This document shows positions 26,838-41,063 of a stretch of 50,101 nt of DNA, one piece after another (the first letter of the stretch is position 1; the number at the start of each line of letters is the position of its first letter). The notes under the pieces are model-generated. The model worked only from the letters and a program-made list of their open reading frames with translations. It had not been told where the DNA came from and did not search any database. Origin of the DNA: Rubripirellula sp. GTDB taxonomy: Bacteria; Planctomycetota; Planctomycetia; Pirellulales; Pirellulaceae. The DNA lies in the NCBI GenBank assembly GCA_028823035.1, contig JAPKCI010000017.1, forward strand, positions 1 to 50,101, written 5' to 3'. Both the position numbers and the translations under genes were made by a program.

Positions 26838-26957
26838 CCTTGCTGAGATGGTTGGCACCTGTTGCCATCGGCAGTGCATACCTGATCAATGCTGACCCTC
26901 TGCCTGGACGTCATCGACCTGATTCTTGCGTTATACTCGATGCTGGAATCTCAAGTC

Positions 26958-27017
26958 GTCCAAGCCGTTGTCCAAGCCGTTGTCCAAGCCGTTGTCCAAG
27001 CCGTTGTCCAAGCCGTG
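26958..27017. repeat. 12-bp tandem repeat, five copies
   Basis: GTCCAAGCCGTT is repeated five times from 26958 to 27017, the only difference being the final base of the last copy. The array ends eight bases before the ATG of the SMP-30/esterase gene, so it would form most of the leader and displace any normal Shine-Dalgarno. An open frame through it reads SRCP repeats, but these codons are unlikely to be translated because the signal peptide starts after the array. Confidence 0.92.
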
Positions 27018-27025
27018 GAACCAGC

Positions 27026-28804
27026 ATGAATCTTTACCCTCGCCTCGTTGTCCGGGGCATCGCAGTCGTCTTTCTCTGTGCCACTCAACTCGTCGCACAA
27101 TCGCCTGCCACTGTCGTTGACCGGAACAGTGCCCTGGAGCATGTTTCCGCTGAATTTGTCATGGCGGACGGTCCATCTTGGGATGGTTGGTCTTTGACGA
27201 TTCCTGATGTCAAAGGAGGGGAACTCGTCAGGTACGTCCCCAAGAGAAAAACGCTTCAGACGTTGCTGCCCGATGCAGGCCGCATCAGTGCGTCTTTTTT
27301 TAATCATGGGCGGCTTTATCTGAGCGACAACGGCAACGGAAATGTTGCTTTCCTTGATGGACGCGAGAAGGTTGTCATTGCAGATTTCGGATCCTTGCAG
27401 ACAGCGGGAGAAAAACGGGAATACCGCCCTAATGATCTGGTAGTCGATCATCACGGCGGCATTTACGTCACTTTCACACCGCAGGGAAAGGTCGTCTATG
27501 TGTCGCCCGATGGACAGCTTGCCGTCGCAGTGGAAAGCGTACCGACCCCCAACGGCGTCACGTTGTCACCCGATGGTTCGACGCTCTATGTCTCGTCAGT
27601 GGCTTCCAAGCAGATTTGGGCGTATGACATCCACCAGCCAGGACAGCTTTCGAATCAACGCAAGATCGCCGTGATGGATGATGGTCCTGTGCGGGGAGCT
27701 GACGGAATGGCAATGGACCGCGCAGGCAATATTTATTGTGCCGGTCCCAGTGATATCTGGATCTGGAATCCGGCTGGTCAGTTGATCGAAAAAATCGCCT
27801 GCCCAACCAAACCGATTAACTGCACATTCGGCGACCAAGATATGCGGTCGCTGTACATTACCGCTGCTGGTGGGCTCTACCGACAAAGGATGAAGATCAG
27901 CGGTCGCGGACCGTCACCTGCTTCACTGGACTTGAAACCTGCTGCCGAGGTTGCTCGAAATCAGGACGCCTCGACGCCACCAATCACGCTGCCGTCCGAT
28001 CTGATTTTTCAACCTGATGTTGTGTTTGCTCAGTATGGAACACGAAAGCTGTTGGCTGATATCATCAGTCCGAAATCAGCAGCATCAGGTGACCGCTTGC
28101 CGGCTTTGGTAGTGGTGCATGGTGGTGGATGGCATAACGGTGATAAGACCAAGTTTCGTGCCCTTTCGATTCGATTGGCCAGTCTCGGCTACGTCGTCGC
28201 TGCCATCGAGTATCGACTTGCCGGTGAAGCCGCGTTCCCAGCGGCGATGCATGACTGTGCAGCTGCCGTGCGTTTTCTTCGCGCCAATGCTGAGCACTAC
28301 CACATCGATGCCGATCATATCGGAGCTGTTGGTGGATCGGCGGGAGCTCATCTGGTCGGATTGATGGCTTCCGGGGGTGGGAATTCTCAACTTCAGGGCG
28401 ATGGTGGTAACCAAGAACAGTCGTCAAGAATACAGGCGGCGATTGTCATGGCCGGACCCATGGAAATGTTGAGCGGCAGCGTGGCCGACCGCTCACGCAG
28501 CGGTCAGGGATTTTCAAATTCGAACAGTTGGCTGCGTGGCACTGTCGACGAGAAACCGGATCTGTATCGCTTGGCCGATGCCTTTGTCCAAATCGACAAA
28601 GGTACCAGTCCCATTCTTTTCATGGCCGGTGAATTTGACAAACCTGAAAGAAACCAGCGATCACGTGACCGGCTCTCAGCCCTGAAAATCGACACCGACA
28701 TCAAAACTTATCAAGACGGCAAACATGGTTGCTGGAACCGTTTGCCGTGGCTTGATGAGATGGTGGTCGACATGGACCGCTTTCTTCAAAAACACTTGAA
28801 GTGA
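27026..28804 (+). CDS. SMP-30/gluconolactonase-esterase fusion, secreted
   Basis: A 592-residue exported two-domain protein. The signal peptide (VVRGIAVVFLCATQLVAQ) fixes the start at 27026. Residues about 30-315 are an SMP-30/gluconolactonase-like beta-propeller (DGPSWDG, SASFFNHGRLYLSDN, PNDLVVDHHGGIYVTF, TPNGVTLSPDGSTLYVSS, RGADGMAMDRAGNIYC). Residues about 335-592 are an alpha/beta hydrolase of the BD-FAE/carboxylesterase type, with oxyanion motif HGGGWHNGDK (from about 365), nucleophile motif GGSAGAH (S438), acid region MAGEFDKPER and catalytic-histidine region GKHGCWNRLP. The combination suggests release of an ester group coupled to sugar-lactone hydrolysis; the substrate is inferred only. 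Promoter and leader are crowded by the 12-bp repeats. Confidence 0.9.
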   Translation: MNLYPRLVVRGIAVVFLCATQLVAQSPATVVDRNSALEHVSAEFVMADGPSWDGWSLTIPDVKGGELVRYVPKRKTLQTLLPDAGRISASFFNHGRLYLSDNGNGNVAFLDGREKVVIADFGSLQTAGEKREYRPNDLVVDHHGGIYVTFTPQGKVVYVSPDGQLAVAVESVPTPNGVTLSPDGSTLYVSSVASKQIWAYDIHQPGQLSNQRKIAVMDDGPVRGADGMAMDRAGNIYCAGPSDIWIWNPAGQLIEKIACPTKPINCTFGDQDMRSLYITAAGGLYRQRMKISGRGPSPASLDLKPAAEVARNQDASTPPITLPSDLIFQPDVVFAQYGTRKLLADIISPKSAASGDRLPALVVVHGGGWHNGDKTKFRALSIRLASLGYVVAAIEYRLAGEAAFPAAMHDCAAAVRFLRANAEHYHIDADHIGAVGGSAGAHLVGLMASGGGNSQLQGDGGNQEQSSRIQAAIVMAGPMEMLSGSVADRSRSGQGFSNSNSWLRGTVDEKPDLYRLADAFVQIDKGTSPILFMAGEFDKPERNQRSRDRLSALKIDTDIKTYQDGKHGCWNRLPWLDEMVVDMDRFLQKHLK

Positions 28805-28839: not shown

Positions 28840-30258
28840 TCACTTGCTGTAGTCAGCGCCCGACCAACTCTTCAAGACTGATTGCTGCCAAGCTTCTAAC
28901 GCAGTTGCCAGTTTGCGAACACGTGGGGAGTCCTGCTGACTCAAATCGTTTGCTTCCATTGGATCGTCGATCAGGTGATACAGTTCGTATTTTACCTGTC
29001 CCTGTTTTTCAATCCGATGCAGTTTCCAGGGCCAGGCGTTCCAGGCAGCGTGTCCGCGCGAATCCAGATTTTCGAGTTTTGGGAACTCATTTACATTCTT
29101 GAGGATGCGTTCGGGATGCGGGTTTGGATTGCCTGCCATCTCGGCTTCCATTAACGCCTTGATGATTCGATCACTCCACGTACCCTGACCATCACGGAAG
29201 CCGTGCCAAAATCCCATCCCGGGACGTGTGTTGCGTTTGCCAGAGATTACGTCAGCCAGATCAATTCCATCCAACGGGGGCTGATGTTCCACGTTCGCGA
29301 GGCCGATGGCAATGAGCGTAGGGTAGAGGTCCGCGGTGAATGCAGGAGTCTCAACTTGCTTTGCCTGATACTTTGCCGGCCACTGCAGAATGGCGGGCAC
29401 ACGTAGGCCACCTTCATAAATGCTACCTTTCTTGGCTCTACCGCCCGATGATGCTGGAACCAGTCCGCCGTTGTCACTGCAATAAAGGAACAGGGTGTTG
29501 TCGCGAATACCCAGGTCTGTCAGCGTTTGCTGCAATCGGCCGACCTGCTGGTCGAGCAGTGTGATCTCGCGAAAGTAACCCGGTTTCTTGGTGTCTTGAT
29601 CGTTGTAAAGTTTGCTGGCCTGTGCCAGATCCGGCAGTTCTTCCTGCGGGTCATGTGGCGAGGGAAACCACGTCACGGTAAACATGGGGTGATCGCCGTT
29701 ATGATGCCGTGTCAGAAAGTCGATGGTGGCATCCATGCTGATCACCGTTCCGGGACCCTTGATTTGTTCGTAGTGGCCGTTTCGACTGAGGTAGGGATCG
29801 TTGTCAAAGAAATTCAATCCCGAAAGCCATTCATCAAATCCCGCTCCGCCCGGATTGGTAGGACTGTCGGGCTGTACCGAACCGATGTGCCATTTACCAA
29901 AATGTCCGGTGACATAACCCACACCCTTCAATGCCTCGGCCATGGTCATTTCATGAGGACGCATGTAATGTCCGTGATTCGGCACGTTAGTACGAAATGG
30001 ATGACGCCCCGTCATGAAGCTGGCACGCGTGGGTGAGCAAACGGGGGCACTGGCGTAAAAACGATTGAATACAACGCCGGTTTCAGCCATGGCGTCCAAA
30101 TGAGGCGTCTGCACAAATGGATGGCCCGTGTACCCGGTGTCCCCGTAACCGTGATCGTCAGCCATCACTAGAACGATGTGGGGTCGTTCATCGGAAAACC
30201 CACGTGAACAAAGGCAAAACAGGCTCAGAGCGGCAAGGCAGATTGGGTTCAGTTTCAT
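28840..30258 (-). CDS. Secreted type I sulfatase
   Basis: A 472-residue sulfatase that hydrolyses sulfate esters after conversion of its active-site cysteine to formylglycine. A signal peptide (MKLNPICLAALSLFCLCSRG) is followed by the metal-site ADDHGYGD (D34, D35) and the sulfatase signature CSPTRASFMTGRHP, in which C74 is the residue to be modified. HFGKWHIGS carries the usual conserved lysine and histidine, and LYCSDNGG supplies further metal ligands. The maturase (formylglycine-generating enzyme or anSME) is not in this window. Planctomycetes carry many such genes for sulfated polysaccharides. It is convergent with the SMP-30/esterase gene, 35 bases apart, and codirectional with the PKS/NRPS genes. 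Confidence 0.94.
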   Translation of the reverse strand: MKLNPICLAALSLFCLCSRGFSDERPHIVLVMADDHGYGDTGYTGHPFVQTPHLDAMAETGVVFNRFYASAPVCSPTRASFMTGRHPFRTNVPNHGHYMRPHEMTMAEALKGVGYVTGHFGKWHIGSVQPDSPTNPGGAGFDEWLSGLNFFDNDPYLSRNGHYEQIKGPGTVISMDATIDFLTRHHNGDHPMFTVTWFPSPHDPQEELPDLAQASKLYNDQDTKKPGYFREITLLDQQVGRLQQTLTDLGIRDNTLFLYCSDNGGLVPASSGGRAKKGSIYEGGLRVPAILQWPAKYQAKQVETPAFTADLYPTLIAIGLANVEHQPPLDGIDLADVISGKRNTRPGMGFWHGFRDGQGTWSDRIIKALMEAEMAGNPNPHPERILKNVNEFPKLENLDSRGHAAWNAWPWKLHRIEKQGQVKYELYHLIDDPMEANDLSQQDSPRVRKLATALEAWQQSVLKSWSGADYSK

Positions 30259-30401: not shown

Positions 30402-33400
30402 TTATCGTGAGAGTGCTTCCGCCAGATGCTGCACGACCGGTTCCTCAAGCATTGCATGTGGCAATACATCCAGTTCGATCATCTGCAAATCATCCGCCAG
30501 TTCGCCCCATCCCATGTTTTTGTCGGGAAAGAAGCTGTAATTTGATTTCGGTGTCACCAAAGTGAGCGTACCTGGATAGCGTTGGGGTACGTAGGCAAAG
30601 GCGGCCGCCTGATTGAGATCCATGATCGGGGTTTTCGTTGCTTCGTCTGCGTTTTTTGCAGGTCTAAACAGCCATGGCAGTGTCGATTGTATCAACAGCC
30701 TCAGTTCGCCGCTCCGCACCACCTGGAACTTACTGGCAAAGTAGGCGGGCCATTGCTTCAGTTTGGTTCTCAGCAGATTTCTCGCATGAAAATAGCACCT
30801 CTGGCTGAACACTGAAATGAAGCCGGGGTGTTTCATTTGATGGAAATTATAGGTGTCCAGGAGAGCCACCGATGCAACCTCATGCCCTTTCGAACTCAAC
30901 AAACGTGCGACTTCAAAGGCGATGGTTCCTCCGAGGCAGTAACCCGCAATTCTGTAAGGACCTGTCGGCTGGGCCGCGAGGATTTCGCGAACGTATCGAT
31001 CGGCCATGTCAACAACGTTTGTCAGGGGATCTGCGTTGCCATCGATCCCCTGTGACTGCAATCCAAACACCGCATGGTCGTTTCCGAGGTATTGAATCAG
31101 CTTTTGGTACAGGATCACATCACCACCTGCTCCGTGTACCAGGTACAGGCTGGGCCGTAACGTGTTGGGCTCGTTTAACGGGATCAATGAAGGCCAACTG
31201 CTGCCGTGATCCATTTGTTTTTGTTGAATGATCTTGGCCAGACCGGCAATCGTAGGGGCATTGATGAGCAAACCCAGAGGCAACTTTACATTGAGACATT
31301 CAGCGATTTCTTGGAATACAGCAACGGCTATCAGCGAGTGGCCACCCAGGTCAAAGAAACTGGTGTTGATGTCAACGATTTCAACACGCAGATGCTTTTT
31401 CCAAATGCGTGAAAGAGTCTTTTCGATGGGTGTTGCTGGCAGATGGCCCTGTCTGGAATGTATCGGCGTGGTATCCACATCTGGCAACGACTTGCGATCC
31501 AGCTTTCCGTTGGGAGTCGTGGGCATCTCCTTAAGAAACCTGAATGCTGAGGGGACCATGTACTCTGGCAACTTATTTCGCAACTGGCTGCGGAGGTCAT
31601 CCAACTCGGGAGGCTGGTTGATGTTCTCAGGCACAGCAAAAGCGATCAGTTGCGATTCGCCTGAACCATCAGGTCTGGCAACAACAACCGCCTGGCTGAT
31701 CGATTCGAGTTCGCTGAGAACAGTTTCAATCTCCCCCAGTTCAATGCGGAATCCTCTTACTTTGACTTGAAAGTCCACCCGCCCGAGGCAATCAATCGTT
31801 CCGTCTTGCCGAACTCTGGCCAGATCGCCGGTCCGATAGACCCGCTGACCATTGGCGAATGGGCTTGCAATGAATTTCTGGCGGGTTAATTCCGGTTTTC
31901 CCCGATAATCACGAGCCAGCCCGTCACCGCCGATCAGCAACTCACCCGGCACGCCCATTGGCGTTGGGTTCATCTGTGGATCAACGATGTAAATCTGGGT
32001 GTTGTCGATCGGCCTGCCAATATGGATGTCATCAGCATCAAGCACATGAGAACAGGTTGACCAGACCGTCGTTTCGGTTGGTCCATACATGTTCCACAGT
32101 TCACCGCAACGAGGCAGCAGTTCTTTGGCCAGTTCAGTGGGTAATGGCTCGCCGCCGCAAAGCACCTTCAATGAAGGACTCCCCTGCCAGCCGGTGCGAA
32201 GCATCATCCGCCATGTTGCAGGCGTGGCTTGCATGACAGAGATCGACTGCTCGGCAATCGCCTGCTGAATGGCCTGAGCGTCAATGATTGTTTCTCTTGG
32301 TGCCAATACCACTGTGGCACCAGTGATCAATGGTAAGTAAAGCTCGAGTACCGCAATGTCGAACGAGATGGTGGTGACGGCTAGCAACACGTCATGTTTT
32401 GTTAGGCCAGGTTTCCGTTTCATCGATTGAAGAAAATTGACTGCCGCTCGGTGTTCTACTTGAACGCCTTTAGGTTTGCCAGTCGAGCCTGACGTGTAAA
32501 TCACATAGGCCAGGTGCTCGGATGTCGATTGCACTGCCGACTCATCCCATTCACATTTGCTAATCGATTGAGATAACTGATCAAGGCATATTGCCGGTGC
32601 AGGAAGTTCATCTGGACGCTCATGCAAACCACTGTCGGTGATGATTGCGGCAGCCTTGGCATCATGCAGGATGTAAGCAATCCGGTCCGCAGGGTAGGCG
32701 GGGTCGAGGGGGACGTAGGCTGCTCCAGACTTCAGGACGGCCAGCAGCGCAACGACCATCTCAATGGATCGATCCAGACAAACGCCTACCAGCACATCAG
32801 GGCCCGCGCCCGCATGTTTTTGCAGGTAGCCTGCCAAGTGATCCGATCGTTCATCCAGTTCCCTGTAGGTGATTTCAGTGCCATTGAACCGAATTGCGAT
32901 CCTGTCAGGGGTTTGCTTGGCTTGCTGTCGCAATAGGCCATGCAGCGTTGCTGCATGGTCATAATCGGCAGCAGTCGCATTGAGTTCATGGACCAGGTGG
33001 TTCTGCTCGTCGCTGCTCAGTAACGAAAAATCTGCAACCTTCATGCCGGGATCGGTGACAGCTTGATCGAGAATGCGTTGGAATTGGGATATCCAACCAT
33101 GTACATCGTCCGTCTCGTAGAGATCGCGGTTGAACTTGTATTCCAATACCAGACGATCGCCATAGTCGATGACGTCGAGTGTGAGGTCAAAGTAATTGAA
33201 TGATTTTGTGGGCCGGGCAACATTTGCTGACAGTTGACCAAAATCACAGGTATTTGCGTTCGCGAGATTAAACGAGGCCGAAATGATGGGGACACGGCTT
33301 GTGTCACGTTTTATCTGTAACGTTCCCAGCAGATTCCCAAAGGTGAAATTCTGATGATATAGACTGTCCAGGACACTCTTGTTGAGACGTTCCAGGAATT

Positions 33401-36400
33401 CATGGAACGGCTCAGTCGGTGGGCATTGAGAGCGTAACGGCAGCATGTTGACACAGTGACCCACCAACAGGGATCCGTCACTGATTTTGGAACTGTTGAT
33501 CGTAGGTTGGCTCGCCATCGGTACTCCCACAACAATATCTTCCTGTTGTGTTACACGCTGGATCCAAATTTTGAAGCTAGACAAAAGGAAACTGAACAGC
33601 GTGCAGTTCTGGGAACGACTTGCGTCACGCAGACGGCTAGTCAGTGATTCATCGATGAATGCGACCAGATGTCCAGCAACGTAAGTCTTGGTGGCTGGAC
33701 GCGGATGGGCCGATGGTAGCTCAAATTCCTGATAGGGCTGCTGAAAAACGGATGTCCAATAGTTCGCGTCGACGCGAGACTTTTTCAGTTGCTCCGCCGA
33801 CTGTGACCACTGTACATATTGTTCGTAGCTTTGAGGTTCACCTAATTCCGTGGCCGCCATCGTTTTGCCATCGCGATACATGGCACCCAGGTCACGCAGT
33901 AACGTATCCCACGACCAGCCATCCAGAACAAGATGGTGGAAAACAAACAGCAGAACATGCCTGGATTCTGATAGCTTGAAAATCACAAATCGTGAGAGTG
34001 GTCCCTGAGTCAGATCAAAGGGAATGGCGATCTGTTCCGCGATCAGACGAGATAGTTCGCTCTCGGTGCTTGCAGGATCATCTTCGGTGGAACTGCGGTC
34101 GTCGAGTTCCACCACGTTGATGGTCTGGTGAATGGATGGATGGATGTACTGGGTTGTCCCGTCAGCAGCAAACGTGAGTCGCAATGCTTCATGGCGATGG
34201 ATCAATTCCAGCATGCACTCTTCCAGATGCGGAAAATCCAGTGCCCCATCGAGTGTGACTGTATAGGATTCGTGGAACGTTCTGGAGGCATCCTGTCCCA
34301 TTTGCGAGGCCAGCCAGATTTCACGCTGCCCATCGGTCATTTCCAACTCGGATGGGGCATCGGATGGGGCACGGTCCGCTGCACCGGGATCAGAGAAGTC
34401 CTGAGAATCGGCTGCCGACACGTTTTCGGCCGGCGATTTCATCGCCTCAATCGCCTCCGCGAGTCGTCGAATCTGCTGACTCATTTCATCTAATCGCAGA
34501 TTTAGCTGGCCAATAGCCAGTTCATTTGGTGGCGATTGGGATGGCTGGTTTTCCAGATCAGTGGACGGCGAACCGAGTTCGCTTAAACCAGAGGACAGTT
34601 GGGTCGCGACGTACTGGGTCAGGGTTTCGAGCGTTCCCAGTTCCTCGGCAAGTTGACGGAGCGTCACCGGCACGCCCCAGTCCCGTTCAATCCTGCGTGC
34701 AAATTGCGTGAGGAAGAGTGAATCAAATCCCTTTGCCAGAAAGGTGTCCGGACGACGCAGTTGCTCGGGGGCCATGCCTGAGAGATCTTCCAGGATCTTC
34801 AGCAGCGTGTCGTCGGTCCAGCGATCTCCTGTGTCACCCACTGGGATGTGGCCTGACGTTTGGGTGACCGCCTTAGGCCCGGACCGGGCGATTGAAATAG
34901 CATCAGTTTCGCAGTCCAGTGACTGTTTGGCTGAGTCTGGAATGCCTTGTTTTTGATCGCTTCGGTCGGGCTCGATCCAGTGCCGTGTTCGTTGGAACGG
35001 GTAGTTTGGCAGTGGCACACGGAACCGCTGCTGACCTCGATAAAAATCATTCCAGTCGACAGGCAAACCCGCTTTCCACAGTTGCCCCAGGGCTGTCAGC
35101 AAGACGGCCTGTTCGGGCGGTGGGTTGCCGTTTCGGGTACCGGTTGATTTGGGAAGCGAAGTAACAAGTGTCTGTTCCGCAGCGAAGGTTGGCTGTTGCC
35201 TGGTAAGTATCGTTAGCGTGTGCCCAGGACCGACCTCCAACAACGCGATGCCATTCATTTGCAGAATGGTCCCGATACCCTTGGCAAACATAACAGCTTG
35301 ACGCAAGTGTGCGGTCCAGTAGTCAGGGCTGACAGCTTGCTCATCCTTGATCCAGTCACCCGTGACGTTTGAAATGAAAGGAATTACGGGTGGTTGTAGT
35401 TCGGACTCACTGAGGATTTCGTTGAACGGTTCAATGACCGGATCCATCATCGGCGAGTGAAATGCATGCGAAGTCATTAGTGGTTGACAGGCAATCGATT
35501 CCCGTTCCAGTTGGGCAACGATGCTATCGATTTCCGTTGTTTCTCCTGAAATGACACACAGACTGGGTGAGTTGATGGCGGCGATCGAAACGCGGTCGGA
35601 CACGAATCGTCTGCATTCAGTTTCGGAACGCATGATTGCCAGCATGGAACCATGCGGTTGGTTCTGAATCAAACGACCGCGAGCGGCGATCAGACGCAGT
35701 GCTTTAGGTAGCGTGAACACGTTCGCCAAGCAGGCGGCGGTGTATTCCCCGACGCTGTGACCGATCATGGCATGAGGTCGAATTCCCCATGACATCCAAA
35801 GTTGGGCCAGTGAATACTCGGTTACGAATAACGCAGGCTGCGTAATGGAAGCCTGGGCGAGTCGTTCTGCTGCCGCGGGGTCATTCGAATCTGCATGAAA
35901 GATTGCCTCGCGGATATCCATTCCCAGATCATCCATGAGCAGTTCGCTGCATCTGTCAACCGAATCGCGATAGACGGGTTCGCTTTCATAGAGTTGCTGT
36001 CCCATGTTCACACATTGCGATCCCTGACCGGGGAACATGAATACCGGTTTTTTTGGTCCGCGCGTCAACGTCGTGTCTGTACGTCGATTGTCGTTGGCAA
36101 TCCGAAGTTGACGCACTGCGTCGTCGTGATTCTGGCAGACAACAGCCCGGCGATGGGCGAAACGGCGTCGCCCGGTTTGGAGCGTGAATGCCACATCAGG
36201 CAGGGACACGGAAGGGTCACCACTGAGGTGATTGGCCAGGTTGTCCGTTGCCTGCTGAAGCGCGTCCGGCGTGTGAGCAGAAATCGTTATCAGGGAATGG
36301 CTTCGTGCAGTGCTGGATAGACTTTGGCCGGTCCGAAGTTGTGAATGGGGAGCTTCTTCAAGGACCAAGTGGGCATTGGTTCCGCCGATGCCGAAGGAAC

Positions 36401-37661
36401 TGACGCCGGCGCGAAGTGGCCCATCGGGCACTTGCCAATCGGTCAGCGAGTCGACGACATAAAAAGGTGAATTGCGAAAATCAATTTCTGGATTCGGTGA
36501 CTCATAATTTATTGTGGGCGGTAATTTTCGGTGTTGCAGGGCCAATGCAGTTTTGATCAGGCCAGCGACGCCGGAGGCCACATCGAGGTGTCCAATGTTG
36601 GATTTGACAGACCCGATGCCGCAAAACTGTTTTCGATTCGTAACTGCGGAAAACGCTTTGCTGAGTCCTGCCAACTCGATCGGATCACCGAATTTGGTGC
36701 CTGTGCCGTGTGCTTCGATGTAGGAAATGCTTTCAGGATCGGAGCCACCTAACGCGTGAGCAATCTGTATGACTTCTGCCTGACCATTTACGCTTGGTGC
36801 TGTGAAGCCAGCCTTGTCGGATCCATCGTTGTTTAAGCCGTAGCCACGAATCACAGCGATCACATTGTCGCCGTCGGCGACTGCATCCTCCAGTCGCCGT
36901 AACACGACCGTGCCAACCCCGTCACTGAAGATTGTTCCCGAGGCTCGGTGGTCAAAGGGTCGACAGTGGCCGTCCTGAGACACTATGCCGGCCTGTGCAT
37001 ATGTCCGCGAGTGATATTGCGGAAATGCCAGATGAGCGGCGCCGGCCAATGCCATGTCGCATTCGTAGTTCAACAGACTTTGGCACGCATTGCAGACTGC
37101 GACCAGCGACGTCGAGCAGGCTGTTTGAATGTTGACAGCTGGCCCGCGAAGATTCAAACAGTAAGCCAGTCGCGTTGCCAGAAAATCTTTTTCATTCAGC
37201 AGCACTGTCGGAAACTCGCCATGACTGCCAAGCACGTCAGGCCGTGTGCTGAGATTACTCATGTAATACGTGTTGATTCCACAACCGACGAACACACCGA
37301 TTGGTCCCGGGGGACGCTCGTGGTCGTATCCCGCGTGTTCAATCGCTTCCCAAGCGACTTCCAGAAAGACCCTCTGCTGAGGATCCATGATTTCGGCTTC
37401 GCGGGGAGTCATGCCAAACAGCCCCGCATCAAATTGATCAGAATCGTCAATCACACCCCTTGCTTGATCTGTCTGTGCATTGGCTTGTGCGGGGTCGACA
37501 CCCAGTTTTATGAAATCCTGTGGGGTAAATCGGGTCAGTGACTCACGCCCCGCAACAAGGTTATCCCAGAATTGATCAATGTTGCTGGCACCGGGGAATC
37601 GTCCAGACATTCCGACGATTGCGATACCTTCGAGCGAGTGTTGAGGGTCTGTTTTGTTCAT
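30402..37661 (-). CDS. Hybrid PKS-NRPS: KS-AT-ACP-C-A-PCP-TE
   Basis: A 2419-residue megasynthase. Ketosynthase: TACSTSL (C182), EAHGTGT, SVKSNIGH, all catalytic residues present. Acyltransferase: FPGQGSQ, GHSVGEY (S636), and HAFHSP near 732, the pattern linked to malonyl-CoA. No ketoreductase or dehydratase follows. ACP: GFDSL (S981), then a linker with a coiled-coil-prone segment. Condensation domain: HHLVLDG (H1242-G1248). Adenylation domain: YTSGSTGKPKG (near 1725), YGPTETT, GELLIGGDGLARDY, NGKLDRKSL; my reading of the specificity positions is D-I-L-Q-L-G-M-V-W-K, close to the glycine code I recall. PCP: GGHSL (S2109). Thioesterase: GYCLGG, with cysteine C2242 where serine is usual, and a histidine near 2402. 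Predicted job: one malonyl extension without reduction, then addition of probably glycine, then release. The start at 37661 lies 7 bases after the upstream stop; earlier codons in frame overlap the neighbour. Confidence 0.95.
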   Translation of the reverse strand: MNKTDPQHSLEGIAIVGMSGRFPGASNIDQFWDNLVAGRESLTRFTPQDFIKLGVDPAQANAQTDQARGVIDDSDQFDAGLFGMTPREAEIMDPQQRVFLEVAWEAIEHAGYDHERPPGPIGVFVGCGINTYYMSNLSTRPDVLGSHGEFPTVLLNEKDFLATRLAYCLNLRGPAVNIQTACSTSLVAVCNACQSLLNYECDMALAGAAHLAFPQYHSRTYAQAGIVSQDGHCRPFDHRASGTIFSDGVGTVVLRRLEDAVADGDNVIAVIRGYGLNNDGSDKAGFTAPSVNGQAEVIQIAHALGGSDPESISYIEAHGTGTKFGDPIELAGLSKAFSAVTNRKQFCGIGSVKSNIGHLDVASGVAGLIKTALALQHRKLPPTINYESPNPEIDFRNSPFYVVDSLTDWQVPDGPLRAGVSSFGIGGTNAHLVLEEAPHSQLRTGQSLSSTARSHSLITISAHTPDALQQATDNLANHLSGDPSVSLPDVAFTLQTGRRRFAHRRAVVCQNHDDAVRQLRIANDNRRTDTTLTRGPKKPVFMFPGQGSQCVNMGQQLYESEPVYRDSVDRCSELLMDDLGMDIREAIFHADSNDPAAAERLAQASITQPALFVTEYSLAQLWMSWGIRPHAMIGHSVGEYTAACLANVFTLPKALRLIAARGRLIQNQPHGSMLAIMRSETECRRFVSDRVSIAAINSPSLCVISGETTEIDSIVAQLERESIACQPLMTSHAFHSPMMDPVIEPFNEILSESELQPPVIPFISNVTGDWIKDEQAVSPDYWTAHLRQAVMFAKGIGTILQMNGIALLEVGPGHTLTILTRQQPTFAAEQTLVTSLPKSTGTRNGNPPPEQAVLLTALGQLWKAGLPVDWNDFYRGQQRFRVPLPNYPFQRTRHWIEPDRSDQKQGIPDSAKQSLDCETDAISIARSGPKAVTQTSGHIPVGDTGDRWTDDTLLKILEDLSGMAPEQLRRPDTFLAKGFDSLFLTQFARRIERDWGVPVTLRQLAEELGTLETLTQYVATQLSSGLSELGSPSTDLENQPSQSPPNELAIGQLNLRLDEMSQQIRRLAEAIEAMKSPAENVSAADSQDFSDPGAADRAPSDAPSELEMTDGQREIWLASQMGQDASRTFHESYTVTLDGALDFPHLEECMLELIHRHEALRLTFAADGTTQYIHPSIHQTINVVELDDRSSTEDDPASTESELSRLIAEQIAIPFDLTQGPLSRFVIFKLSESRHVLLFVFHHLVLDGWSWDTLLRDLGAMYRDGKTMAATELGEPQSYEQYVQWSQSAEQLKKSRVDANYWTSVFQQPYQEFELPSAHPRPATKTYVAGHLVAFIDESLTSRLRDASRSQNCTLFSFLLSSFKIWIQRVTQQEDIVVGVPMASQPTINSSKISDGSLLVGHCVNMLPLRSQCPPTEPFHEFLERLNKSVLDSLYHQNFTFGNLLGTLQIKRDTSRVPIISASFNLANANTCDFGQLSANVARPTKSFNYFDLTLDVIDYGDRLVLEYKFNRDLYETDDVHGWISQFQRILDQAVTDPGMKVADFSLLSSDEQNHLVHELNATAADYDHAATLHGLLRQQAKQTPDRIAIRFNGTEITYRELDERSDHLAGYLQKHAGAGPDVLVGVCLDRSIEMVVALLAVLKSGAAYVPLDPAYPADRIAYILHDAKAAAIITDSGLHERPDELPAPAICLDQLSQSISKCEWDESAVQSTSEHLAYVIYTSGSTGKPKGVQVEHRAAVNFLQSMKRKPGLTKHDVLLAVTTISFDIAVLELYLPLITGATVVLAPRETIIDAQAIQQAIAEQSISVMQATPATWRMMLRTGWQGSPSLKVLCGGEPLPTELAKELLPRCGELWNMYGPTETTVWSTCSHVLDADDIHIGRPIDNTQIYIVDPQMNPTPMGVPGELLIGGDGLARDYRGKPELTRQKFIASPFANGQRVYRTGDLARVRQDGTIDCLGRVDFQVKVRGFRIELGEIETVLSELESISQAVVVARPDGSGESQLIAFAVPENINQPPELDDLRSQLRNKLPEYMVPSAFRFLKEMPTTPNGKLDRKSLPDVDTTPIHSRQGHLPATPIEKTLSRIWKKHLRVEIVDINTSFFDLGGHSLIAVAVFQEIAECLNVKLPLGLLINAPTIAGLAKIIQQKQMDHGSSWPSLIPLNEPNTLRPSLYLVHGAGGDVILYQKLIQYLGNDHAVFGLQSQGIDGNADPLTNVVDMADRYVREILAAQPTGPYRIAGYCLGGTIAFEVARLLSSKGHEVASVALLDTYNFHQMKHPGFISVFSQRCYFHARNLLRTKLKQWPAYFASKFQVVRSGELRLLIQSTLPWLFRPAKNADEATKTPIMDLNQAAAFAYVPQRYPGTLTLVTPKSNYSFFPDKNMGWGELADDLQMIELDVLPHAMLEEPVVQHLAEALSR
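34348..34371. repeat. 12-bp duplication in PKS-NRPS linker
   Basis: TCGGATGGGGCA occurs twice in tandem, within the coding region for the linker between ACP and condensation domain. It encodes the in-frame repeat SDAPSDAPS and so only lengthens a flexible linker. Confidence 0.8.
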
Positions 37662-37668
37662 CTCTTTT

Positions 37669-39009
37669 TCAGACCCGTTTTGCTCGACGCTTTTTGTTGG
37701 ACAATGCTTCACGATGACGCTCTGCCTTGCTCTGCAACTGGGCTGTTCCATTCAGCGGATGGCGAGACCTGTCTGAGACCGAATTTTTTTTGGACGCATC
37801 AGCGATGTGGGTTGCTGGATCGGCACGGTAACCATTTCTGGCGGCATTCCCAGCAGAACTCGCCATGTTGTTATCCAGATGGACAGCCAACTGCTCGATC
37901 GTCGGATACTGGAACAACACAGCCATCGGCACCTGAATGCCGAATCGGTCAGTCACATCCGATTGGAGTTGTTCCAGCATCAGGGAGTCACCGCCAAGGT
38001 CAAAGAAATTACTCTGCACGCCGACTCGGGAAACTTTCATTGCCGAACTCCATAAGTTGGCTAGCTTCTGTTCGGTGTCACTGGAAGGTCCGACGTAATT
38101 CGGGTCCCCGCGGCCTTCGGCATGATCTGCGATGACATTTTGGTTGCCCGCGGCCTTGGGATCAGGAATGCCGGAAACGTCTTCAGCATCGGACGGCAAT
38201 CGGGCAATTCCCACAAACAACGGTCTCATGATTGAATGATCGGGATCCTTCAGCATTCGTTTCCAGGATCGGATCATGTTTTCGAATGTCTGCTGATCGA
38301 GGAAACCACTCTCAACCAACTCTGCGGGAATGCCGACACCCTCAGACTGGAAAAAGGCATTGTCGCCTATAATTTTACTGTGGGAAACCTCCATTTCATA
38401 TCCCTCGATTACCAATCCTGCTTTTGTGAATAAAACAGGAAGTCTGCGCCCTATACAGGGGTCACCACCATCTTGTCGGCGCGACAGGCAGTAAGCTTCA
38501 TATAGCGGCTCGAGTTCGGTAACGCTGGGTGAGGTTCGCAGGTGAAATTCGAAATCGTTGGCAATGATTGCGATTCGACCGCCCGGCTTTAAGAGTGAAG
38601 CGACAGACTTTAATACAGCGACGGGGTCTGTCACATGTTCCAGAACCAATCGCATTACAATGAAATCAAAGCTGAAAGGATCGAGACCAGGCTGTTCTGC
38701 GGAGCCCTGATGGATTGCAACCTGATGATCCGTGGATGCAAATCGCTGACGGCACGCATCGACAAGAATCGGATCGATTTCGAGCCCGGTCAGGGAAAGT
38801 CCCTGAAGTTCTGTTGCAAACAATTCAAGCAGCCGTCCAGGGCCACAACCACAATCCAGCACTGTCATCCCGTCGGTCAAGCCGTGCCGCCGCAGCAGTC
38901 GTTTTTCCGTCTGCCAAAAGAGATCTACCTGAGCATCCAACCGGCGAATTTCTGCCTGCAGATTGGCTGCGAATTCGGCAACGTGATAAGAGCCTGTAAT
39001 CGTCGTCAT
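37669..39009 (-). CDS. Methyltransferase-carrier protein didomain
   Basis: A 446-residue protein that starts the PKS/NRPS operon. Residues about 15-290 form a class I SAM-dependent methyltransferase (VLDCGCGPGRLLELF near 49-57, GLEIDPILVDACRQ, FDFIVMRLVLEHVTDP, LKPGGRIAII). Residues about 310-385 form a phosphopantetheine carrier domain with GGDSL (S342). A basic tail (QSKAERHREALSNKKRRAKRV) resembles C-terminal docking helices seen at NRPS/PKS protein junctions. There is no adenylation, KS or loading domain, so the carrier must be charged in trans. The start at 39009 is chosen because the methyltransferase pattern begins right after it; the frame is open to 39243 but those residues look unrelated. 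The likely role is to hold and methylate the starter or intermediate handed to the downstream KS. Confidence 0.87.
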   Translation of the reverse strand: MTTITGSYHVAEFAANLQAEIRRLDAQVDLFWQTEKRLLRRHGLTDGMTVLDCGCGPGRLLELFATELQGLSLTGLEIDPILVDACRQRFASTDHQVAIHQGSAEQPGLDPFSFDFIVMRLVLEHVTDPVAVLKSVASLLKPGGRIAIIANDFEFHLRTSPSVTELEPLYEAYCLSRRQDGGDPCIGRRLPVLFTKAGLVIEGYEMEVSHSKIIGDNAFFQSEGVGIPAELVESGFLDQQTFENMIRSWKRMLKDPDHSIMRPLFVGIARLPSDAEDVSGIPDPKAAGNQNVIADHAEGRGDPNYVGPSSDTEQKLANLWSSAMKVSRVGVQSNFFDLGGDSLMLEQLQSDVTDRFGIQVPMAVLFQYPTIEQLAVHLDNNMASSAGNAARNGYRADPATHIADASKKNSVSDRSRHPLNGTAQLQSKAERHREALSNKKRRAKRV

Positions 39010-39665
39010 TGAACCGGTCGTTCTTGTGGGGATGCTAGCGGGTACTTCAACAGGCCTGCCGTCGCCATCGAAACAGCACTCGCGAATCCCCCAACACGTT
39101 TCGCGCGAACTTTGGGAAAAATCCGGAAACAGGTTGGCTTCGCGTATGTGAATCGAGCTCTCAGGTGTTCTTCGGACGATGCGCTCAGCACCGTTTCGAA
39201 TACCCGACTTGTGAGTTCCCCCCCAGAAATGCAACCGAATCAAAGATTCGAAATCTCATTCCAACGAACGCACTTTCATCGTTGTTTGAGTGTAATCACC
39301 CTGCAGGCCGGGTCAAAAAAAGTTGCCTGCAAGGGAGGGTGCGGAAACATGGCACTGGGCATCCCAGCCGGCGCAACCGCAGGAATCAACTTCGAATGGC
39401 GGTGATTGATCGGTTAAATACTTGGCAATTACGGCAAATGCGGTGTTTTCCAGGCTGTCAGTCACCCTGCGGGATGGTTTTTCGGCAGTGGCTCGGCTGA
39501 CCTTGCGAGATAAAACACATGGTTGCCGGGGATTCACGATTGATGCCCTTTTGATTTTCACTGTCTCGATCTGGTGAATGACGTCGAAAAGTACTTCTCA
39601 CACACCGATGCCGGCGGGGCTAAACTGAGGGTTCGTTACTCAGACCTGTGCGAGGTTATTCCAGC
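39010..39665. other. Divergent intergenic region
   Basis: About 650 bases between the PKS/NRPS operon and a DUF1501 gene transcribed the other way. No family-like coding sequence was seen on either strand, including no remnant of an adenylation or loading domain upstream of the methyltransferase. A small hairpin CTGGG-CAT-CCCAG lies near 39356. Promoters of both operons must be here. Confidence 0.4.
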
Positions 39666-41063
39666 ATGTCGATCGATCGTCGTTCCTTTCTCGTCGCCTC
39701 TGCTGCCGGCTACGCCGGTTTGCAATTGGGGCGTCCCACGCCAGTTGTTGCCGACGGGGTTGCTTCGGCTAGTGGAAATGCAAAATCCGTGATTCTGTTC
39801 TTTCTCTGCGGCGGTGCCTCCCATGTCGATACGTGGGACATGAAACCGGATGCTCCCAGCGAATATCGTGGCCCATTTTCACCAATCGCAACTTCCTCAC
39901 CAGAGATCCGGTTGTGCGAACACCTGCCCCTGGTATCCAAACAGGCTCATCATCTGGCAGTGGTCAATTCCGTTGGTGGGACGGTCAATACCAATGATCA
40001 CCATGCCGGTTACTACTACAACCTGACGGGGCATGTTCCCGATGAAACCTTCAAGAGTCAGGGGAATGATCGCAGACCCTACCGTGATGATTGGCCCTTC
40101 ATGGGATCTGTCGTGAGTTCGCGGGCAAAGCGGCAGACCACGTTGCCAAGTGCCATCACTTTGCCCCATATGCCAAGCCGTAAACCGTATACGAGACCGG
40201 GCCAATTCGCTGCCAAGCTAGGTGTCGAATTTGATCCACTTTATGTAGAGGGTTCTGTTGATGATCCCATGGTATTTCAGGCCCCATCATTGATGGTTTC
40301 AGGTGATGTCACGCGTGAACAGTTTCTATCGAGACAGGAATTATTTAAAACATTGGATCAAGCACGCAGTCAGTTTGAGTCTTCGCCGGATGTACGCATC
40401 TGGAAGCAACATCAAGAACGCACGATGAATTTGCTGCTTGCCAGCGAGACGACAACTGCATTCGATCTGGAACAGGAACCTCAGTCTGTTCGGGACCGTT
40501 ACGGAACATCAGTCAATGCCATGAGTTTGCTGCTTGCCCGCCGCCTTGTGCAAGCGGAAATCCCGTTTGTTACTGTGTTCTGGAAAGAGAACGAGAAGAT
40601 CAAAGATAAGTGCAAAAGCGCCGGTGGTTGGGACACACATGGCAACAACTTCGGTTGCCTCAAAGAACATTTGTTGCCCGAGTTTGATCAGGCGTTCTCA
40701 GCATTGGTTGAAGATTTGGCACAGCGGGGAATGCTGGACGAAACACTTTTGCTGGTGACCAGCGAAATGGGGCGTCAGCCCAAAATTGGGGATCGACGTT
40801 CGGGCGGTGTCAGCGGTGCTGGACGAGATCATTGGACCCATTGTCAGAGCGTCTTGTTTGCTGGCGGTGGCATTCAAGGTGGTCAGACTTACGGAGCAAG
40901 CGATCGCTTTGGCGAGTATCCGAGTGACCATCCCGTGACCCCTGCTGATATCACCAAGACGGTCTATCATGCGACCGGCACTCGCGATCTCATTGCCCGC
41001 GATTCACAGGGGCGTCCCTACAGCCTGCTGGATTCGGGGCATCCGCTTACGGCTTTGTTTTAG
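39666..41063 (+). CDS. DUF1501 family protein, Tat-exported
   Basis: A 465-residue DUF1501 protein with a twin-arginine signal (IDRRSFLVASAAGYAG). The ATG at 39666 has GAGGT nine bases upstream, favouring it over a GTG at 39648. Family blocks: ILFFLCGGASHVDTWDMKPDAP, GPFSPIATSSPEIRLCEHLPL, GGWDTHGNNFGCLKEHLLPEFD, GAGRDHWTHCQSVLFAGGG and the C-terminal PVTPADITKTVYHATG. Where its relatives here read EFGRTP, this one reads SEMGRQPKIG, a variant of a well-kept site. It is not next to a cytochrome gene on its own strand; it converges with the WD40 gene, overlapping it by 17 bases. Confidence 0.9.
   Translation: MSIDRRSFLVASAAGYAGLQLGRPTPVVADGVASASGNAKSVILFFLCGGASHVDTWDMKPDAPSEYRGPFSPIATSSPEIRLCEHLPLVSKQAHHLAVVNSVGGTVNTNDHHAGYYYNLTGHVPDETFKSQGNDRRPYRDDWPFMGSVVSSRAKRQTTLPSAITLPHMPSRKPYTRPGQFAAKLGVEFDPLYVEGSVDDPMVFQAPSLMVSGDVTREQFLSRQELFKTLDQARSQFESSPDVRIWKQHQERTMNLLLASETTTAFDLEQEPQSVRDRYGTSVNAMSLLLARRLVQAEIPFVTVFWKENEKIKDKCKSAGGWDTHGNNFGCLKEHLLPEFDQAFSALVEDLAQRGMLDETLLLVTSEMGRQPKIGDRRSGGVSGAGRDHWTHCQSVLFAGGGIQGGQTYGASDRFGEYPSDHPVTPADITKTVYHATGTRDLIARDSQGRPYSLLDSGHPLTALF

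What the first reader, a model, noticed from the sequence alone, without database searches (positions are those of the whole stretch)
30402..39009. Minimal two-gene PKS/NRPS line with no visible loading module
Seen: a methyltransferase-carrier protein, then KS-AT-ACP-C-A-PCP-TE with all catalytic motifs readable and no KR or DH. Known: unreduced beta-ketoacyl-aminoacyl thioesters are the usual precursors of 3-acyl tetramic acids through Dieckmann closure. Inference: the product is a small methylated acyl-malonyl-glycine compound, perhaps a tetramic acid or pyrrolidinedione. Characterised planctomycete metabolites are few, so a compact complete line is worth attention.
Basis: partly seen in the sequence, partly recalled or inferred. 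Interest (0 to 1): 0.75.

Follow-up and report, generated by a model that had tools for sequence, protein, structure and literature searches.

The report
Two-gene PKS–NRPS line lacking its aminotransferase
A planctomycete carries a compact two-gene enzyme assembly line that should join an unknown, probably methylated, starter, one malonate unit and glycine, and that looks like a cut-down version of a wider family whose members add an amino group; its product, perhaps a tetramic acid, is unknown.

Summary
The window encodes MT-PCP (37669-39009, minus) and KS-AT-ACP-C-A-PCP-TE (30402-37661, minus; start 37661, not 37751). Pfam shows no KR, DH or ER. The A domain is a glycine type (pocket DILQLGMVWK; nearest single solved domains DhbF and AB3403).

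The pair is a discrete cassette between a DUF1501 and a sulfatase gene, intact in one other species. In five congeners these neighbours lie about 300-400 bp apart without it; one gap may hold a relic, and a sixth congener keeps a broken TE.

New: its KS falls in a planctomycete clade in which the 19 other lines examined all carry an aminotransferase (AMT). The window genome shows no PKS-type AMT. So the beta-ketone probably stays, giving a beta-ketoacyl-glycyl thioester. The TE has a cysteine nucleophile, shared with relatives, and a histidine seen only in this lineage among 27 TEs aligned.

A 3-acyl tetramic acid is the best guess, not shown. Starter and methyltransferase substrate are unknown. 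A new variant of a known kind.

The parts
37669..39009 (-). MT-PCP gene, 446 aa (class I methyltransferase plus carrier protein)
   Evidence: Pfam Methyltransf_11 68.4 bits and PP-binding 59.5 bits; ortholog 67-69% identical with same start
38155..39009 (-). methyltransferase region (residues 1-285, boundary approximate; SAM motif VLDCGCGPG)
   Evidence: best Foldseek match 3mgg, on a low-confidence model whose core alone is confident
37879..38070 (-). PCP of MT-PCP (LGGDSL phosphopantetheine site)
37672..37752 (-). basic C-terminal tail of MT-PCP (KAERHREALSNKKRRAKRV), possible docking helix
   Evidence: tail motif kept in the ortholog although the C-terminal stretch as a whole is 37% identical; role inferred
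30402..37661 (-). PKS-NRPS gene, 2419 aa, KS-AT-ACP-C-A-PCP-TE
36360..37631 (-). KS (TACSTS, EAHGTGT, KSNIGH)
   Evidence: PF00109 243 bits; motifs; tree
35199..36044 (-). AT (GHSVGE, HAFH: malonyl type by recalled rule)
34587..34829 (-). ACP (KGFDSL), boundaries approximate
   Evidence: (two PP-binding stretches); 51% to ortholog
32994..34346 (-). C domain (HHLVLDG)
   Evidence: PF00668 300 bits; 28-34% to C domains of seven related lines
31503..32933 (-). A domain, glycine type, pocket DILQLGMVWK
   Evidence: PMC11253843 passages
31230..31418 (-). PCP (LGGHSL)
30405..31151 (-). TE with Cys nucleophile (GYCLGG), Asp (LLDTY), lid His (FHARN) and C-terminal His (LPHAML)
39648..41063 (+). DUF1501 gene: flank of the cassette, not part of it
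   Evidence: next to the sulfatase, matched ends 302-406 bp apart, in five genomes without intact cassette
28840..30258 (-). sulfatase gene: other flank of the cassette, not part of it

Best explanation
The two genes form a self-contained assembly line. MT-PCP most likely takes the place of the loading didomain: a starter acyl or aminoacyl group, loaded in trans by an enzyme not yet identified, is methylated while bound to the PCP and passed to the KS (inferred). The KS-AT-ACP adds one malonate (motifs shown). Relatives have an AMT domain that should convert the beta-ketone to an amine; here that domain is missing, so the beta-ketone stays (absence shown, consequence inferred). The C-A-PCP adds glycine (strongly predicted). 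The Cys-type TE takes the beta-ketoacyl-glycyl chain as a thioester, and the acidic carbon between the two carbonyls attacks the glycyl carbonyl, releasing a methylated 3-acyl tetramic acid (inferred; about 0.45 for this release mode on its own).
For: Domain order and motifs. Glycine: pocket DILQLGMVWK; in the pocket region DhbF 201.9 bits and AB3403 200.2 bits, then 8www 162.4; LgrA's 209 bits sum two domains of 100.7 and 105.6; PMC11253843 lists DhbF and 4ZXH/4ZXI as Gly (passages). AMT loss: KS pair joined to its sister group at 96/92 inside a 21-row clade (84/88) whose 19 other rows all show an AMT in the same or a neighbouring gene; no PKS-type AMT in G000 or G176, best match 33%, against 100% in the positive control G157, whose second match is 37%. 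Completeness: two-gene cassette with empty sites. MT-PCP as upstream partner: gene order, and the slot before the KS in relatives holds A-PCP, FkbH-PCP or NRPS-PCP. Two PPTase-family genes in the genome. Selection: dN 0.24 and 0.28 with synonymous sites saturated between the two species. TE: Cys, Asp and a His found only in this lineage. Cys-Asp-His TE-like Dieckmann cyclases are known (passages of PMC10956176 and PMC4979870).
Against: Eighteen other aligned TEs of related lines also have Cys, so it did not arise for Dieckmann closure. Thirteen of those 18 were seen with an AMT; two (L082/L114, L098/L133) showed no AMT in the stretch fetched and still lack the His, and three were not looked at, so the His does not simply go with absence of the AMT. 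The window His is one residue off the His of the Ser-type TEs, so a working triad is not shown. NcmC (6E6Y) is not among the 36 sequence hits or the 50 listed fold hits. The 21-row clade has only moderate support, the root is a midpoint, and outside it lines without a visible AMT occur (L133, L135, L137, L139), so loss rather than primary absence is the plainer reading, not proof. No enzyme that loads MT-PCP was found. The C domain is more diverged than A or TE. The genome is a draft in 523 contigs.
Confidence: 0.4

Rival explanations
1. MT-PCP is a split-module partner, as LynB2 is and BarF and JamN are thought to be: the AT loads malonyl on its carrier, the KS builds a beta-ketoacyl chain there, and the MT O-methylates the enol to a 3-methoxy-2-alkenoyl group before glycine is added. 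The product would be a methoxy-alkenoyl glycine, not a tetramic acid.
For: A free-standing MT-ACP didomain of this kind was assayed in lyngbyapeptin B biosynthesis and is postulated for barbamide and jamaicamide (passages of PMC10127204); the window has the same two-domain architecture.
Against: Here the KS-AT is followed by its own ACP in cis; MT-PCP precedes the KS-AT gene; its carrier is PCP-like. Sequence kinship with LynB2 was not tested.
Confidence: 0.2
2. The same chain is made but the TE simply hydrolyses it, giving a linear N-(beta-ketoacyl)glycine.
For: The domain is a PF00975 thioesterase with fold matches to several TE kinds; the Cys is shared with related lines that should not do Dieckmann chemistry.
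Against: In the Cys-TE ObiF1 the Cys-to-Ser change made hydrolysis dominant, so a Cys nucleophile can favour ring closure (passages of PMC6668435); a lineage-specific His suggests changed chemistry.
Confidence: 0.25
3. The cassette is a decaying leftover without a working product.
For: The AMT is missing, no starter loader is visible, one congener has a broken TE (G186) and another a probable 32-residue relic (G187).
Against: Both full-length copies are open and keep the motifs; dN is 0.24-0.28 while synonymous sites are saturated.
Confidence: 0.1

Closest known systems
Pirellulaceae-type FkbH-PCP-KS-AT | ACP-AMT-C-A-PCP-TE lines found here (L105, L106, L107, L108, L110, L111)
   Same: KS (50-53%), AT, ACP; A domain with the DILQLG glycine pocket type in five of the six (L110 differs); Cys-type TE
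   Different: They have an AMT between ACP and C and an FkbH-PCP loader; their TE lacks the C-terminal His; the window has MT-PCP and no AMT
Mycosubtilin/iturin and microcystin type AMT lines (recalled, not tested)
   Same: KS-AT-ACP followed by C-A-PCP; ACP with an FRQL-like motif recalled as typical before an AMT
   Different: AMT absent; single glycine; TE directly after
LynB2/BarF/JamN MT-ACP didomains (PMC10127204, passages)
   Same: Separate MT-carrier protein beside a KS-AT
   Different: There it holds the ACP of the split KS-AT module; here the KS-AT has its own ACP; sequence relation untested
TrdC/NcmC Dieckmann cyclases (PMC10956176, PMC4979870, passages)
   Same: Cys, Asp and His in an alpha/beta hydrolase; tetramate formation there
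   Different: Those are free-standing enzymes; this is a PF00975 domain in cis and NcmC is not among its listed hits
AB3403 (4zxh/4zxi) C-A-PCP-TE
   Same: Glycine A domain and Cys-type TE box (GWCFGG, alignment)
   Different: No PKS module; called uncharacterized in PMC6668435 (passages)

Membership tests
Hybrid type I PKS-NRPS | Complete KS-AT-ACP and C-A-PCP modules with catalytic motifs | tested here: met
Glycine-specific A domains | Pocket code and nearest characterised domains | tested here: met
   DILQLGMVWK (that this is a glycine code is recalled); DhbF and AB3403 nearest single domains, both Gly in PMC11253843
Planctomycete PKS-AMT lines | KS in the same clade | tested here: met
   84/88 for the 21-row clade (not starred), 96/92 for the inner group (starred), 100/100 for the window pair
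Planctomycete PKS-AMT lines | AMT (PF00202) domain after the ACP or next door | tested here: not met
TrdC/NcmC Dieckmann cyclase | Free-standing, homologous to NcmC/TrdC | tested here: not met
   domain in cis, PF00975; NcmC not among 36 sequence hits nor the 50 listed of 1657 fold matches
TE acting as Dieckmann cyclase | Catalytic Cys/Ser-Asp-His triad | tested here: inconclusive
   Cys and Asp in place; His after the last strand but one residue off the usual place
TE acting as Dieckmann cyclase | Tetramate formation | not testable with these tools
   needs enzyme assay
LynB2-type MT-ACP didomain | Two-domain MT plus carrier protein beside a KS-AT | tested here: met
LynB2-type MT-ACP didomain | O-methylation of a 3-oxoacyl carrier thioester; sequence homology | not tested
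   no LynB2 sequence at hand

The most novel reading that the evidence does not exclude
A natural chemistry switch: a beta-amino-acyl-glycine assembly line lost its aminotransferase, swapped its loader for a methyltransferase-carrier protein, and its unusual Cys thioesterase, whose relatives lack the C-terminal catalytic histidine, acquired a histidine there that turns it into a Dieckmann cyclase, so that a minimal two-gene planctomycete cassette makes a methylated tetramic acid.
Probability: 0.2. Interest if true: 0.65.

Novelty: new variant of a known kind. Interest (0 to 1): 0.42.

Why it matters
Genome mining of about 100 planctomycete strains found many predicted clusters that do not group with known ones (passage of PMC12078418). 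A two-gene line with clear boundaries is small enough to express whole. Because sister lines keep the AMT, comparing them would test how loss of one domain and one or two TE residues redirects a product, and whether Cys thioesterases without the usual histidine can work.

Tried and rejected
FkbH-loaded glyceryl starter: rejected, no FkbH match in G000 or G176 (1 of 22 genomes of the genus has one, G183). AMT supplied in trans: no close homolog (I gave the handle G138 there by mistake for the genome behind locus L138, which is G079; G138 serves only as one more background genome, best 35%). Stand-alone A domain on contig C107 as loader: ortholog-like (68-100% identical) in 3 of 22 genomes, both cassette carriers included, with a fourth genome at 32%; it has its own small carrier protein and neighbours, so it is only a weak candidate. 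Cys TE as proof of Dieckmann closure: dropped when relatives showed the same Cys. Transfer from a donor of other composition: no sign; GC of MT-PCP (52.1) and PKS (53.2) lies within the range of seven neighbouring genes (51.6-55.2). MT substrate from its relatives: the best relatives over the whole MT (24-31%) lie in several genomes beside an acyltransferase-like gene (FeeM 24.7 bits, under the cut-off of 27) and a desaturase, which does not settle it. MT-PCP model: mean pLDDT 53.5, only the MT core confident, so its fold hits say little. Rfam gave 0 matches; PADLOC gave one MT-type match, mad2, not followed. The synonymous rate was undefined (saturated) for both whole genes by NG86, and YN00 failed.

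Rows dropped or not seen: of the 30 TE loci, L079, L090 and L097 were left out of alignment A1, L075 was replaced by its fetched contig L103, and L073 is the window itself. L079's gene was seen as L113 (Cys, no His); L090 and L097 were not inspected. Of the 12 AMP-binding places one is the window itself, nine were scanned (eight had matches, L050 none at E 1e-60), and L051 and L052 were not scanned. For the empty site, 17 of 22 genomes had the sulfatase at E 1e-150: G000, G176 and G186 aside, 14 were fetched; 5 have the DUF1501 neighbour at 83-87% and are informative; 9 have a more distant sulfatase (56-74%) without it and are not. Most lower matches are carrier-domain hits and were not followed. 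In some searches only a few candidates per genome were scored (7 and 4).
Full report
What is there. The window is contig 163 of a draft planctomycete genome (G000, 7.4 Mb in 523 contigs, 99.6% complete). On the minus strand it holds MT-PCP (37669-39009, 446 aa) and, 7 bases downstream, KS-AT-ACP-C-A-PCP-TE (30402-37661, 2419 aa). The ORF as first read starts 90 bases too early. Of seven PF00109 places in this genome the window's is the strongest; the other six lie in open frames of 431-474 aa. Pfam lists no KR, DH or ER among 12 families in the large protein. Twenty other ORFs of the window were scanned: sulfatase, DUF1501, DUF1552, PSCyt/PSD proteins, LRR, ThuA, lactonase, VIT, SGL/BD-FAE and the like, two without a match, none biosynthetic by name.

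Catalytic residues. KS (TACSTS, EAHGTGT, KSNIGH), AT (GHSVGE, HAFH), ACP (KGFDSL), C (HHLVLDG), A core motifs, PCP (LGGHSL), MT (VLDCGCGPG) and its PCP (LGGDSL) are present. The KS Cys is present, so this is not a decarboxylating KSQ (recalled rule) and a starter must be supplied. HAFH points to malonyl (recalled rule).

Glycine. The ten pocket residues read DILQLGMVWK. For the 201-residue pocket region the best single-domain solved relatives are DhbF (5u89, 201.9 bits) and AB3403 (4zxh, 200.2), then 8www (162.4), 8xjz (151.2) and Txo2 and Txo1 (133.6, 132.4); LgrA ranks first only as the sum of two domains of 100.7 and 105.6 bits. PMC11253843 lists DhbF and 4ZXH/4ZXI as glycine enzymes (passages).

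Cassette. One other species of the genus (G176; its contig appears to be the record PKCN01000337.1, MAG Plancto7) has the same two genes in the same place, 68% (MT-PCP) and 64% (PKS) identical over aligned codons. Among 241 genomes of the family and 396 drawn from the order only these two gave a full-length MT-PCP match (few candidates per genome were scored). Five of 14 further fetched genomes have the two flanking genes (sulfatase 79-84%, DUF1501 83-87% identical) with 302-406 bp between the matched ends and no intact cassette. In one of them (G187) the gap holds a 32-residue stretch, 41% like the end of the TE, with a stop codon, in the orientation of the sulfatase and about as far from it as the PKS end is in the window; E is 3e-4 or 1e-3 by query, and 0 of 200 shuffled sets reached 1e-3 (best 0.012). 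A sixth genome (G186) keeps a TE with a frame change, beside the sulfatase, on a contig that ends 306 bases beyond the last match; an assembly error is possible there and the DUF1501 side was not seen. So the unit is two genes, and it has probably been lost or degraded in relatives. Between the two species dN is 0.24 and 0.28 with synonymous sites saturated, which speaks for selection on both proteins.

Family. Searches with the KS-AT and TE brought up many lines in the family. In the fetched stretches a common plan is a loader (A-PCP or FkbH-PCP), then KS-AT-ACP-AMT, then C-A-PCP and/or TE; AMT and FkbH were recognised by Pfam or NCBIfam in L105, L106 and L109 and by BLAST with the L105 domains elsewhere. 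In a tree of 30 KS domains the window pair groups with six A-PCP-KS-AT-(ACP)-AMT lines (96/92) inside a 21-row clade (84/88, moderate). All 19 other rows of that clade show an AMT in the same or a neighbouring gene; in L142 and L148 it is cut by the end of the stretch, in L149 it is a gene of its own. Of the nine rows outside, L131 has an AMT next door and L147 an AMT gene between its two KS genes, while L133, L135, L137 and L139 showed none. The root is a midpoint. The plainest reading is loss of the AMT in the window lineage. The AMT is not seen elsewhere in the genome: the best match is 33% over 342 residues, no better than the background class III enzymes of other genomes. The glycine pocket type DILQLG[LM][IV]WK recurs in 14 of the 15 C-A-PCP modules read, the ortholog included; the exception is L110 (DIAQITLIWK). 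The relatives should therefore make beta-aminoacyl-glycines, and the window line a beta-ketoacyl-glycine (inference).

Thioesterase. In an alignment of 27 TEs, 21 have Cys as nucleophile and 6 have Ser. All 6 Ser types have a C-terminal His (GDHAHM or GAHANM). Of the 21 Cys types, 18 have P-A-G or P-A-A there and no His; 3 (window, G176, G186) have P-H-A. All 21 Cys types share a lid motif [FY]HxxN. Thirteen of the 18 come from lines seen with an AMT, two (L114, L133) from stretches that showed none, three were not looked at, so the His does not simply track the AMT. The model (mean pLDDT 86.4) is a TE fold; the first Foldseek matches are 7crn, the oocydin TE 7r0x and AB3403. The passages read say that TrdC/NcmC-type enzymes form tetramates with Cys-Asp-His, that in BpdE neither C89A nor C89S restored production (PMC10956176), and that in ObiF1 the Cys-to-Ser change led to dominant hydrolysis (PMC6668435). 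These make Dieckmann release plausible. They do not prove it, and the Cys is older than this lineage.

MT-PCP. It most likely stands where relatives have A-PCP or FkbH-PCP. FkbH is absent. One stand-alone NRPS-type A domain is ortholog-like in 3 of 22 genomes of the genus, both cassette carriers included, but has its own carrier. A rival is the LynB2 model, where an MT-ACP didomain O-methylates a 3-oxoacyl chain (PMC10127204, passages).

What is in print. Searches for planctomycet with tetramic acid (one paper, on Actinomycetota, listing only), with AMT-domain and FkbH terms (three papers, listings only), and for planctomycete PKS/NRPS clusters (52 papers, 20 listed, listings only) showed no title or abstract start that reports this line or family. 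PMC12078418 (searched for words, passages seen) had no hit for NRPS, PKS or tetramic. Most subscription papers are not held, so this is not proof of absence.

Verdict. Real, complete in itself, ordinary in kind, unusual in composition. Product unproven.

Noticed in passing
L105, L106, L107, L108, L110, L111 (and L134, L146, L148 with shorter or partial second genes): A recurring family of FkbH-PCP-KS-AT lines followed by ACP-AMT with C-A-PCP-TE or TE alone; apparently a common beta-amino-acyl(-glycine) pathway for which the searches showed no report.
   Followed up: partly
L138, L140, L143, L144, L149 (L141 cut): Sister lines A-PCP-KS-AT-ACP-AMT with a separate C-A(-PCP) gene that shows no TE match; four of the five C-termini printed end in GFW plus one residue. 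Release enzyme unknown.
   Followed up: partly
Alignment A1 (e.g. L076, L086, L101): TE domains with Cys nucleophile and no C-terminal His (P-A-G or P-A-A in its place) but an invariant lid [FY]HxxN: 18 of 27 TEs aligned.
   Followed up: partly
L122:5365-10420: Small cluster on another contig of the window's genome: stand-alone A domain (scanned), and by eye only a carrier protein, a luciferase-like monooxygenase, a GNAT-like and a formyltransferase-like gene.
   Followed up: partly
L014, L015, L016, L018: Relatives of the window MT lie between an acyltransferase-like gene and a desaturase-like gene (Pfam run on L015 only; others by eye); possibly an N-acyl amino acid cluster like the NAS loci discussed for stieleriacines (PMC12479983, passages).
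   Followed up: partly
window 26840-28804: ORF with a repeated CPSR stretch near its N-terminus before the SGL and BD-FAE domains, probably an over-extended start.
   Followed up: no
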